From contig JAUXGM010000043.1 of NCBI GenBank assembly GCA_030622125.1, positions 1-15,420 of the forward strand: DNA of 15,420 nt, in the 5' to 3' direction. Shown here piece after piece: positions 11,117-15,420 of the stretch. Numbering within the stretch: position 1 is the stretch's first letter; every line of letters begins with the position of its first letter. The stretch comes from a bacterium (lineage in GTDB: Bacteria; AUK180). The notes beneath the pieces were generated by a model. It did no database searches. It was not told the DNA's origin and was given only the letters and a program-made list of their open reading frames with translations. The position numbers and the translations under genes were made by a program.

Positions 11117-12406
11117 ATGAAAACAAATCATAAAATAATAATTGGCGATTCAAGATGCATGAATGAGGTAGGTGATAAATCTATTCATTTAATAATTACT
11201 TCTCCACCATATTGGCAGTTAAAAGACTATGGGAGAAAAAAGCAAATTGGATTTAATGATTCTTATGAAGATTATATTAATAATCTAAATTTAGTTTGGG
11301 ATGAATGTTACAGAATTTTAGATAATGGTTGTAGATTATGTATTAATATTGGTGATCAGTTCGCACGTTCAGTTTATTACGGTAGATATAAAGTAATCCC
11401 GATAAGAACAGAAATTATTAAATTTTGTGAAACTGTTGGTTTTGATTATATGGGAGCTATAATTTGGCAAAAAGTTACTACATGCAATACGACTGGCGGT
11501 GCGACCATTATGGGTTCTTTTCCATATCCCAGGAATGGAATAATTAAATTGGATTATGAATTTATACTTATATTTAAAAAACCGGGGAAAGCAAAGACAA
11601 TTCCAAAAGAAATAAAAGAAAAATCAAAAATGACTAAAGAAGAATGGAATGAATTTTTTATAGGTCATTGGAAATTTTCCGGGGTAAAACAAGATAAACA
11701 TTTAGCTATGTTTCCATTTGAATTACCCAGGCGATTGATAAAAATGTTTTCTTTTGTTGGAGATACAGTTTTGGACCCATTTCTGGGCAGTGGAACAACA
11801 TCTCTTGCTGCGAATAAATTGGAAAGAAATTCAATTGGTTATGAAATAAATTCTGATTTTTTGCCGTATATCACCGATAAAATAGGATTTAAATCAAATG
11901 ATGAACATTATATTATTTTAAGTCAAAAATCCATTGATCAAAAAGAAATTGAAAGGCGAATTAAAAAATCGCCTTATATTTTTAAAGATCCTATTAAGTT
12001 TAATAAAAAAGTGGATCCAAGAAAACAGCAATATGGTTCCAAAATAACTTTAAAAGATAACAAAAATAATAGCAAAAAATTATTTTCTGTTAAAGATATT
12101 ATAAGTCCAAATCTTATAGTATTAGATAATGGATGTAAAATCCAATTAATAGGGATTACTCCAATAAAGAATAAACAAACAAAAGCGATAATTTTTTTAA
12201 GAGAAAAAACTAAGGGACAAAAAGTATATTTAAACTTTGATAAATCAATTAGCAATAGTGATGGTACAATATCAGCGTATTTATATTTAAAAAATAAAAC
12301 ATTCGTTAATTTACATTTACTTAAAAATGGATTAGTAAATGTTGACACGAACGTCAACTTCCGATATAAAAGTAGGTTTTTAAAAGTTATTGATCAAGAG
12401 AATTAA
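11117..12406 (+). CDS. N4-cytosine-type DNA methyltransferase with SNase-like C-terminal domain
   Basis: A 429-residue modification enzyme transferring methyl from SAM to a base in DNA. Motif IV comes first as TSPPYW (28-33), the form typical of N4-cytosine methyltransferases, and motif I (SAM site) comes later as LDPFLGSGTT (219-228), giving the beta-class order. The GDS (10-12) and YEINSDFL downstream of motif I fit the fold. After about residue 325 the protein changes character: IVLDNGCKIQLIG, then SAYLYLKNKTFVNLHLLKNG (about 384-403) matches the OB-fold of staphylococcal nuclease (compare 'LAYIY..GK.VNEALVR.GLA'). The nuclease residues are gone: Arg35 becomes Gln, the Asp40/Glu43 loop reads ITPIKN, and the Arg87 position is Thr. 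This tail is probably a DNA-binding module. It lies 1 bp upstream of the endonuclease gene. Confidence 0.9.
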   Translation: MKTNHKIIIGDSRCMNEVGDKSIHLIITSPPYWQLKDYGRKKQIGFNDSYEDYINNLNLVWDECYRILDNGCRLCINIGDQFARSVYYGRYKVIPIRTEIIKFCETVGFDYMGAIIWQKVTTCNTTGGATIMGSFPYPRNGIIKLDYEFILIFKKPGKAKTIPKEIKEKSKMTKEEWNEFFIGHWKFSGVKQDKHLAMFPFELPRRLIKMFSFVGDTVLDPFLGSGTTSLAANKLERNSIGYEINSDFLPYITDKIGFKSNDEHYIILSQKSIDQKEIERRIKKSPYIFKDPIKFNKKVDPRKQQYGSKITLKDNKNNSKKLFSVKDIISPNLIVLDNGCKIQLIGITPIKNKQTKAIIFLREKTKGQKVYLNFDKSISNSDGTISAYLYLKNKTFVNLHLLKNGLVNVDTNVNFRYKSRFLKVIDQEN

Positions 12407-12407
12407 T

Positions 12408-12992
12408 ATGACAAGAAAAATAAAAATCAAAACCATTGAATTAGAACAATTACTTAATGTGGATAAATATGATTTTCCTAAATATTCTACACAGATATTA
12501 AATTTAGCTAATCAAAATGCACAAGGTACTAGACCCAAAGTTGTTGGACAATTATCAGATTTGATTCAAGAATTTAATGGTAAAACAATCAAAGAATGGG
12601 AAAATTGGTATTTGAAAAAACATCCAAAGGCAATTGAAAATGCTTCCGACAAGATATTCTCAATGGTAGAAAATTTTAAGGATGTAATGAATAAAATTGA
12701 TAAGGACTTAATAACAACTTGGGTTAAAGATTTAGTAATAATAAAAACGTTTATTGGTTTACGTTTTCAAGAAGCCATCCTAAAAAAAATATCACATTTG
12801 TTAAATAAAAATTATAGATTAGCAATTCCCGAAGAAGAATCTCAAGGAATTGACGGGTTTATTGGAAATATACCAGTTAGTATTAAACCACATACATACA
12901 AAATAAAAAAGGCATTATCTGAAGAAATTGATGTGAAAATAATCTACTATGAAAAGAAAAAAGATGGATTAAATATTTATTTTTCGCTATAA
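12408..12992 (+). CDS. MjaI-like type II restriction endonuclease
   Basis: A 194-residue protein immediately after the methyltransferase (1 bp gap), started at the ATG at 12408 with AAGAG 7 bp upstream. The N-terminal segment STQILNLANQNAQGTRPKVV (27-46) is what I recall as the hallmark of the MjaI restriction endonuclease family (CTAG cutters). A PD-(D/E)xK-like site is visible: D149 in QGIDGFIG and the downstream SIK (158-160), with Ser in place of the usual acidic residue; E122 in the preceding helix may complete the site. Together with the methyltransferase it would form a restriction-modification system. The family match is from memory of the motif. The stop overlaps the convergent degP-like gene by 16 bp, with no terminator between them. 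Confidence 0.75.
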   Translation: MTRKIKIKTIELEQLLNVDKYDFPKYSTQILNLANQNAQGTRPKVVGQLSDLIQEFNGKTIKEWENWYLKKHPKAIENASDKIFSMVENFKDVMNKIDKDLITTWVKDLVIIKTFIGLRFQEAILKKISHLLNKNYRLAIPEEESQGIDGFIGNIPVSIKPHTYKIKKALSEEIDVKIIYYEKKKDGLNIYFSL

Positions 12993-14380
12993 AATGTATA
13001 TATTTTACCACCGTTTCTTGAAAGGTAGAACATTACTCCTTTGTGCGTATTCACCTTTGAGATTGCTTCAAGGTAATCATCCATTGTTACTATCTTTTTG
13101 TTGTTTATTTTTAATATTACATCACCAATTTCCAACCCGGCTCTTTCAGCAAATTTTCTACTTTCAATCTCAACTATAATAATACCGTTAACATCCCTTG
13201 GTATTCTATATCTTGCTCTCACATTTTCGGTAAGTGATTGAACCTTTAATCCAAGTTTATCATTTTTTATGTGTTCTTTTGCTTTTGCTGTTCTGTTTTC
13301 TTTATTTTCACCTAATGTAACCGAAATATTTTTATACTTTTTATTTCTCCATAGTTTTAATTGAACTCTATCGCCAGGTTTATGAGAAACGATCTTCATA
13401 CGAAGATCCTCCCGATATTTTACTAATTTCCCATTAACACTAACGATAATATCACCACTTTTTAATCCTGCTTTTTCGGCAGCGGAACCATTTACAACCT
13501 CTGTTATAAGAAGACCATTTTCACCCTTATAATTAAACCCCTTTTTTAGATCATCCGTTAATGATTGTGTAGAAACGCCGAGAAAACCCCTTTTGACATT
13601 TCCTCCCTTTTTCAATTGCGGAAGAATGGTTGTAGCGAGGTTGATGGGAACGGCAAAGCCGATTCCTTGAAATCCACCGGTTCTGGATATAATTGCCGTA
13701 TTTATGCCGATAACTTTACCTTCCAGATCTACAAGAGGACCGCCCGAATTTCCGGGATTTATTGCGGCGTCCGTCTGGATCATTTTTTGCAATTGCGAAT
13801 TGGTAATTCCATCTCTTCCAAGGGCACTTACAATACCCGAAGTAACGGAAAAGTTAAGTCCAAAGGGATTCCCAACCGCAATAACCCATTGTCCTATCTG
13901 CAGATCATCGGAATTTCCAAGTTTAGCAGCCGGTAAATTCTTTCCATTGATCTTAATTAGAGCAATATCGGTCATCGGATCCGTTCCCTTAACCTTAGCT
14001 TCAAATTTTTTACCGGATAAAAGCGTAACAGTGATCTTATTCGCGTCTTTGACAACATGATAATTTGTCAAAATATAACCATTCTTTGAGATAATAAAAC
14101 CACTTCCAAGTGAATTTACCTTTCTCTTCGACGATCTATGATCATGAGGTGCTTCACCAAAAAAGTATTTAAAAAAATCATCATCAAAAAAAGGAGAAAA
14201 GCCTCGGATCTCAATCTCACTTTCGGTGCTGATATTAACAACCGACTGCCTTACCTTACCTGCAACATCTACAAATGCTTTTGAAATATTTTTTAATTGT
14301 TCTGTTGTCGCAGGGGACTGAGAAAACACCATAGATGCAAAAAATACAAGTACAAAAACGAGAGAAAAAATTTTCTTCAT
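12977..14380 (-). CDS. degP: Periplasmic serine protease, HtrA/DegP family
   Basis: A 467-residue quality-control protease/chaperone of the periplasm. The start at 14380 is fixed by GGAGGT (14390-14385 on its strand) and a signal peptide (residues 1-20, cleavage before Gln21); the frame extends 28 codons upstream without support. The trypsin-like domain holds the complete triad: H108 (ILTNYHVV), D138 (DPMTDIALIKI) and S212 (INPGNSGGPLVD). A LoopA-like acidic/aromatic insertion (FSPFFDDDFFKYFFGEAPHD) follows the first strands. Two PDZ domains follow: PDZ1 (about 265-360, RGFLGVSTQSL, KAGLKSGDIIVSVNG) and PDZ2 (about 375-465, RAGLEIGDVILKINN). Size and domain order match DegP/MucD. It is single on its strand, with a probable promoter at 14434-14407. 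Confidence 0.95.
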   Translation of the reverse strand: MKKIFSLVFVLVFFASMVFSQSPATTEQLKNISKAFVDVAGKVRQSVVNISTESEIEIRGFSPFFDDDFFKYFFGEAPHDHRSSKRKVNSLGSGFIISKNGYILTNYHVVKDANKITVTLLSGKKFEAKVKGTDPMTDIALIKINGKNLPAAKLGNSDDLQIGQWVIAVGNPFGLNFSVTSGIVSALGRDGITNSQLQKMIQTDAAINPGNSGGPLVDLEGKVIGINTAIISRTGGFQGIGFAVPINLATTILPQLKKGGNVKRGFLGVSTQSLTDDLKKGFNYKGENGLLITEVVNGSAAEKAGLKSGDIIVSVNGKLVKYREDLRMKIVSHKPGDRVQLKLWRNKKYKNISVTLGENKENRTAKAKEHIKNDKLGLKVQSLTENVRARYRIPRDVNGIIIVEIESRKFAERAGLEIGDVILKINNKKIVTMDDYLEAISKVNTHKGVMFYLSRNGGKIYTFYSEK

Positions 14381-14406
14381 CTCTACCTCCAAAAAATTAA
14401 AAAGCA

Positions 14407-14434
14407 AATATAAACTTTGCATTAAATATGCCAA
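14407..14434 (-). promoter_or_regulatory. Possible promoter of the degP-like gene
   Basis: On the minus strand TTGGCA (14434-14429) and TATATT (14412-14407) are 16 bp apart, ending about 26 bp before the start codon. The match is moderate. A heat-shock or envelope-stress sigma site would be expected for some degP genes, but I see no convincing GAACTT-type element. Confidence 0.35.
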
Positions 14435-14530
14435 ATTGTAACTTCTTTGATATTGGAATCTCAATTATTTTACTGTATAAAAAAAACGAAAATAATGTAT
14501 AAAATGGAAACAGTGAAAATGCAAATACAG

Positions 14531-14904: not shown

Positions 14905-14977
14905 GCTGGAGTAGCTCAGTTGGCAGAGCACCTGATTTGTAATCAGGCGGTCGTGGGTTCAAATCCCTCCTCCAGCT
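14905..14977 (+). tRNA. tRNA-Thr (anticodon UGU)
   Basis: A complete 73-nt cloverleaf. Acceptor GCTGGAG pairs with CTCCAGC (14970-14976), followed by discriminator T. The anticodon stem CCTGA/TCAGG encloses TTTGTAA, with anticodon TGT at 14938-14940 (reads ACA and wobble codons). The T-loop is TTCAAAT; the T-stem GTGGG/CCCTC has one T-T mismatch. No CCA is encoded. It is first in the cluster. Confidence 0.96.
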
Positions 14978-15011
14978 TATGTTATTTTATTTTATAGCCT
15001 ATATTTGTGAG

Positions 15012-15037
15012 GACCTAAGATTATATATTCTTGGGTC
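15012..15037 (+). other. Hairpin in the spacer between tRNA-Thr and tRNA-Tyr
   Basis: GACCTAAGA (15012-15020) and TCTTGGGTC (15029-15037) form a 9-bp stem (one T-G wobble) with an 8-nt TTATATAT loop, ending 6 nt before the tRNA-Tyr gene. No T-run follows, so it is not a terminator. It may guide cleavage of the tRNA precursor (RNase III-like) in the only long spacer (66 nt) of the cluster. Confidence 0.6.
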
Positions 15038-15043
15038 AATAAT

Positions 15044-15131
15044 GGTGGGATGGCCGAGTGGTTAATGGCACCAGACTGTAAATCTGGCAACGGTAGCGTT
15101 TGCGGTGGTTCGAATCCATCTCCCACCACCA
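15044..15131 (+). tRNA. tRNA-Tyr (anticodon GUA)
   Basis: A class II tRNA: acceptor GGTGGGA pairs with TCCCACC (15121-15127), discriminator A (15128), and the 3' CCA is encoded (15129-15131). The anticodon stem CCAGA/TCTGG encloses CTGTAAA, with GTA at 15078-15080. The long variable arm CAACGGTAGCGTTTG and a T-loop of the TTCGAAT type are as expected for bacterial tRNA-Tyr. Confidence 0.97.
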
Positions 15132-15134
15132 TTG

Positions 15135-15210
15135 GCGGGAATAGCTCAATTGGTAGAGCATCACCCTTCCAAGGTGATTGTTGCGGGTTCGAGCCCCGTT
15201 TCCCGCTCCA
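15135..15210 (+). tRNA. tRNA-Gly (anticodon UCC)
   Basis: Acceptor GCGGGAA pairs with TTCCCGC (15200-15206), discriminator T, and CCA is encoded at 15208-15210. The anticodon stem TCACC/GGTGA encloses CTTCCAA, with TCC at 15168-15170 (reads GGA/GGG). The T-loop TTCGAGC is standard. It begins 3 nt after the CCA of tRNA-Tyr. Confidence 0.97.
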
Positions 15211-15212
15211 GT

Positions 15213-15420
<208 letters not shown>

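What the first reader, a model, noticed from the sequence alone, without database searches (positions are those of the whole stretch)
12050..12406. DNA methyltransferase fused to a catalytically dead staphylococcal-nuclease-like domain
Seen: after the beta-class methyltransferase core (motif I at residues 219-228), residues about 325-429 align by eye with the OB-fold of staphylococcal nuclease, especially SAYLYLKNKTFVNLHLLKNG. Known: that nuclease needs Asp21, Arg35, Asp40, Glu43 and Arg87. Here Arg35 is Gln (CKIQLIG), the Asp40/Glu43 loop is ITPIKN and Arg87 is Thr (SDGTISAY). Inference: the nuclease fold has been recruited as a non-cutting DNA-binding or target-recognition module of a modification enzyme. 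I do not know a described case of this arrangement.
Basis: partly seen in the sequence, partly recalled or inferred. Interest (0 to 1): 0.72.

Follow-up and report, generated by a model that had tools for sequence, protein, structure and literature searches.

The report
Methyltransferase with dead nuclease-fold tail
A DNA-marking enzyme of a bacterial restriction-modification system carries at its end a staphylococcal-nuclease-shaped domain that has lost its cutting residues; it is shared by a widespread family and probably helps the enzyme hold DNA, but it is an add-on to an otherwise well-known kind of system.

Summary
The ORF at 11117-12406 (429 aa) is a beta-class DNA methyltransferase (PF01555). 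Residues 317-429 are predicted with high confidence as a staphylococcal-nuclease fold (VIA Z about 16, 2.1 A over 111 residues to 1SNC). All five catalytic positions are replaced here (D21N, R35Q, D40T, E43K, R87T), and no member of an 80-protein alignment keeps the catalytic set.

The next gene (12408-12992) is an MjaI-family restriction endonuclease, 53% identical to the MjaI-family endonuclease gene beside M.MthZI, so this is most likely a CTAG (m4C) restriction-modification pair. The tail is ancestral to the family, evolves faster than the core but under purifying selection, and is missing in four scattered members, one beside an apparently intact endonuclease. With M.MthZI lacking it, that argues against a target-recognition role. 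Best explanation: a non-cutting accessory DNA-backbone-binding module, like the unrelated tail of CcrM. I found no published description. New variant of a known kind.

The parts
11117..12406 (+). beta-class DNA methyltransferase with C-terminal SNase-like domain, 429 aa, stop TAA
11201..11212 (+). motif IV, SPPY (residues 29-32), typical of N4-cytosine enzymes
   Evidence: sequence; invariant in 80 relatives
11771..11800 (+). motif I, LDPFLGSGTT (residues 219-228), after motif IV as in the beta class
   Evidence: sequence; core columns invariant or nearly so
12035..12046 (+). conserved GSKI at the linker (residues 307-310); kept as GSKI/GSVI/GSRI or GSK in members without the SNase domain
12065..12403 (+). 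degenerate SNase domain (residues 317-429)
12110..12169 (+). stretch with the lost catalytic positions: N332 (D21), Q343 (R35), T348 (D40), K351 (E43)
12266..12268 (+). T384 at the position of Arg87
12408..12992 (+). MjaI-family restriction endonuclease, 194 aa, its ATG one base after the methyltransferase stop codon (TAATATG)
   Evidence: PF09568 E 2.9e-72; 53% identical to the MjaI-family endonuclease beside M.MthZI; junction

Best explanation
This is the methyltransferase of a two-gene MjaI/MthZI-type restriction-modification system, most likely methylating CTAG at cytosine N4. Its tail is a staphylococcal-nuclease domain that joined the methyltransferase before the family radiated, lost its metal-binding and general-base residues, and stayed as a non-cutting accessory module. 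Shown: fold (by prediction), fusion, loss of catalytic residues, conservation, adjacent endonuclease. Inferred: the tail contacts the DNA backbone non-specifically, raising affinity or residence so that methylation keeps ahead of the endonuclease, while the core reads the sequence.
For: SNase fold. Catalytic positions lost family-wide. Tail is net basic: +11 here, family mean +6.5, range +1 to +12. The old active-site cleft of the family has R/K at the R35 position (77/80) and Lys or Arg at the D40 metal position (76/80), as expected if it now holds phosphate without metal. Close pairs with measurable dS give domain dN/dS of roughly 0.05-0.13, so the domain is kept by selection. MjaI-like endonuclease genes or fragments are found in 66 of 80 loci. 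CcrM, also beta-class, has a C-terminal non-specific DNA-binding domain after a short linker, and loses activity without it (PMC6787082). In the small sample, three of four tail-less members have no intact endonuclease seen nearby.
Against: No DNA-binding test exists. In this particular protein the cleft is neutralised (Q343, T348), and its domain is among the most diverged of the family. One tail-less member (L155) sits beside an apparently intact endonuclease, so the tail is not always needed. Net charge alone is weak evidence. Relative placement of the two domains in the model is not known: no PAE was given and residues 305-318 have pLDDT under 50.
Confidence: 0.5

Rival explanations
1. The tail is a structural or dimerisation element that stabilises the methyltransferase, with no direct DNA contact.
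For: The most conserved tail residues (L344, G346, Y388, L391, N393, T395, F396, N398) include the SNase structural motif (TFxN and neighbours), also found in secreted SNases, so conservation may reflect folding only. The linker GSKI motif is kept even without the tail, so the linker rather than the tail may pack on the core.
Against: A family-wide basic cleft (R/K343, K348) is not needed for folding.
Confidence: 0.27
2. The tail is a target-recognition module that sets the sequence specificity.
For: It is attached to a sequence-specific enzyme in nearly all members of the family.
Against: M.MthZI shares the core and lacks the domain; tail-less members exist, one with a full-length MjaI-like endonuclease; the core of beta-class enzymes has its own recognition region between motifs (established knowledge), and this core matches solved beta-class enzymes that lack the tail.
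Confidence: 0.08
3. The tail recognises something else: the nascent mRNA, the partner endonuclease, or modified or single-stranded nucleic acid, giving regulation of the pair.
For: Degenerate SNase domains have turned into protein-binding modules elsewhere (eTudor, PMC7641849); the gene lies directly upstream of the endonuclease.
Against: No sequence feature points to it; the tail is also present where no endonuclease was found nearby and in a viral contig without one near (L173).
Confidence: 0.12
4. The tail is still a nuclease using other residues.
For: The fold is intact; the family keeps R35 (R 59 of 80) and Asp at the D83 position (78/80).
Against: Metal ligands D21 and D40, base E43 and R87 are replaced; no aligned member has the whole set, and none has Asp at D40.
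Confidence: 0.03

Closest known systems
M.MthZI / MthZI (CTAG restriction-modification, plasmid pFZ1) and M.MjaI / MjaI
   Same: beta-class methyltransferase core 37% identical to M.MthZI over about 280 aa; partner endonuclease in the same family, 53% identical to the MjaI-family gene next to M.MthZI; M.MthZI characterised as a 4mC CTAG enzyme (PMC5867850)
   Different: M.MthZI is 355 aa with no SNase match; its endonuclease gene is convergent rather than downstream in tandem. M.MjaI itself was not compared here.
TTHA0409 of Thermus thermophilus (2zie), beta-class methyltransferase
   Same: closest solved core: E 4.6e-53; Z 25.1, 229 residues
   Different: 297-aa chain; the match covers only the core
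CcrM of Caulobacter
   Same: beta-class core followed by a linker and a C-terminal domain; there it binds DNA non-specifically (PMC6787082)
   Different: its tail is SAND/PWWP-like, not SNase; methylates adenine in GANTC
Staphylococcal nuclease (1SNC) and bacterial SNases (PF00565)
   Same: same fold, Z 15.7, about 20% identity
   Different: catalytic residues and the loop before helix 1 lost; fused to a methyltransferase
eTudor domain (Tudor-SN lineage)
   Same: degenerate, probably inactive SNase domain kept as a non-cutting module (PMC7641849)
   Different: eukaryotic, with a Tudor domain inserted; binds methyl-arginine

Membership tests
beta-class DNA methyltransferase (PF01555) | methyltransferase core with SPPY/DPPY before the SAM motif FxGxG | tested here: met
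   PF01555 E 4.4e-44; SPPY 29-32, FLGSG 222-226; solved beta-class relatives at Z 19-25
N4-cytosine CTAG methyltransferase (MthZI/MjaI type) | homology to M.MthZI | tested here: met
   37% over about 280 aa, E 5e-44
N4-cytosine CTAG methyltransferase (MthZI/MjaI type) | methylates CTAG at cytosine N4 | not testable with these tools
   inferred from the partner endonuclease and from M.MthZI; needs methylome sequencing
MjaI-type restriction-modification system | adjacent MjaI-family endonuclease | tested here: met
   PF09568, 242.3 bits against cut-off 22.7, whole profile
Staphylococcal nuclease (PF00565), as a fold | OB barrel plus helices of the SNase fold | tested here: met
   Z 15.7, rmsd 2.1, 111 residues to 1SNC; 21.5 bits against cut-off 21 for the domain alone
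Staphylococcal nuclease (PF00565), as an enzyme | D21, R35, D40, E43, R87 present | tested here: not met
   N, Q, T, K, T at these positions

The most novel reading that the evidence does not exclude
A widespread, previously undescribed class of restriction-modification methyltransferases in which a dead nuclease domain was turned into a metal-free phosphate clamp (Lys or Arg in place of the Ca2+-binding Asp40) that holds DNA for methylation: a nuclease recycled as the guard against another nuclease.
Probability: 0.25. Interest if true: 0.6.

Novelty: new variant of a known kind. Interest (0 to 1): 0.42.

Why it matters
It shows a nuclease fold kept, under selection, as a non-cutting part of an enzyme that protects DNA. 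The family is common in uncultured bacteria and archaea, is usually found next to an MjaI-like endonuclease, and includes natural tail-less members, so the role of the tail can be tested directly by comparing natural and engineered truncations. It does not change the understanding of restriction-modification itself.

Tried and rejected
Sequence search of the tail alone against the PDB found nothing; only the profile gave one weak staphylococcal nuclease match (E 0.0042), so the fold rests on structure prediction and on Pfam hits of relatives. Search of phage records with the tail: no match. Literature searches for a methyltransferase-SNase fusion found no described case, in an open-access library only; domain databases may list the architecture. 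No standalone form of the degenerate domain was found: hits below about 1e-22 were fused to this core, or were broken genes or fragments, except L124, a separate nuclease with an intact catalytic set. Weaker hits that I examined were separate nucleases or other proteins without a methyltransferase core; not all were examined.

Full report
Observation. The window encodes a 429-aa methyltransferase at 11117-12406. Pfam gives N6_N4_Mtase over residues 23-252 (4.4e-44) and SNase near its cut-off over the tail (21.5 bits for the tail alone against 21; 18.5 in the whole protein). NCBIfam's thermonuclease model also matches the tail (1.3e-6, far under its own cut-off). Tails of relatives match PF00565 above the cut-off: 24.5 to 38.1 bits in seven tested.

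Structure. AlphaFold2 on an 80-sequence alignment predicts the tail at pLDDT mostly 92-97, with strands and helices in SNase order; the domain folded alone gives the same elements. VIA-align gives Z 15.7 at 2.1 A over 111 residues to 1SNC for the full model, and Z 15.6 at 2.0 A for the domain alone. The core matches TTHA0409 (Z 25) and other beta-class enzymes. The linker (305-318) is not confidently modelled, so the placement of the two domains is unknown.

Catalytic residues. Aligned with separate, intact SNases found in the same searches (for example L124, with DGDT, R, VDTPE and KYGR), the window protein has N332, Q343, T348, K351 and T384 in place of D21, R35, D40, E43 and R87, and lacks about ten residues of the loop before helix 1. 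Over 80 aligned proteins the D21 position is mostly Glu (58), R35 is Arg (59) or Lys (18), D40 is Lys (72) or Arg (4), E43 is mixed, and R87 is Asn (66). None has the full set and none has Asp at D40; the best keeps three of five.

Family. The core averages 82% pairwise identity and the tail 60%. In close pairs where dS could be estimated, tail dN/dS is roughly 0.05-0.13 and core about 0.03-0.05, apart from one nearly identical pair (L003/L006) with too few changes to judge. So the tail is faster but constrained. The window's tail is the second most diverged of the 80 (48% mean identity).

Ancestry and losses. A tree of the cores, rooted on M.MthZI, places tail-bearing proteins in the deepest clade, and four tail-less members (L142, L155, L161, L165) in separate places: support 0.93 for L142 with L007, 0.99 for L155 with L046, 0.93 for the clade of L165, weak for L161. 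The tail was thus probably ancestral and lost several times. L155 lies beside a 215-aa endonuclease that matches nearly the whole profile; L142 and L161 have no MjaI-like endonuclease next to them; L165 has a shortened one near the end of the stretch held. All four keep a GSKI-like linker end (GSKI, GSVI, GSK, GSRI).

Context. The gene directly downstream (12408-12992, its ATG one base after the stop codon) is an MjaI-family endonuclease (junction), 53% identical to the MjaI-family endonuclease gene next to M.MthZI on plasmid pFZ1. The core is 37% identical to M.MthZI, which is a characterised 4mC CTAG enzyme (PMC5867850). MjaI-like endonuclease genes are found in 59 of 80 loci by a single-sequence search, plus seven more, some only fragments, by a profile built from these. 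Some of the rest lie near contig ends. CTAG specificity is therefore likely but not tested.

Mechanism. The tail cannot plausibly cut. It is unlikely to set specificity, since M.MthZI and the tail-less members do without it. It is kept by selection, is basic (+11 here, family mean +6.5), and in most members has positive residues where the nuclease held phosphate and Ca2+. CcrM shows that a C-terminal domain of a beta-class enzyme can bind the DNA backbone non-specifically and be needed for activity (PMC6787082). I therefore favour an accessory DNA-holding module (0.5). A purely structural role is the main rival (0.27).

Novelty. Both halves are known families and the system is of a known type. 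I found no paper describing the fusion in the library searched; domain databases may already list it. New variant of a known kind.

Noticed in passing
L007, L012, L018, L042 and others, downstream of the methyltransferase: Very similar methyltransferases (about 65% identical or more) are paired with two strongly diverged kinds of MjaI-like endonuclease: close to the window's (E about 1e-70 to 1e-86) or remote (E about 1e-4 to 1e-9). If both protect the same site, the endonucleases have diverged or been swapped while the methyltransferase stayed.
   Followed up: partly
L173:2065-3465: A viral contig carries the methyltransferase with the SNase tail, a longer C-terminus and no MjaI-like endonuclease in the stretch held; a neighbouring ORF (120-1973) looks like a contractile tail sheath protein by eye.
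   Followed up: partly
L114, L119, L120: A subgroup of 458-468 aa has an insertion of about 35-45 residues in the core near profile position 195, a His at the R35 position, and no MjaI-like endonuclease found next to it.
   Followed up: no
window 14905-15285: Cluster of four tRNA genes: Thr(tgt), Tyr(gta), Gly(tcc), Thr(ggt); the short ORFs listed there are spurious.
   Followed up: no
window 12977-14464: HtrA/Deg-like protease gene (by eye) on the minus strand, convergent with and overlapping the 3' end of the endonuclease gene by 16 bases.
   Followed up: no
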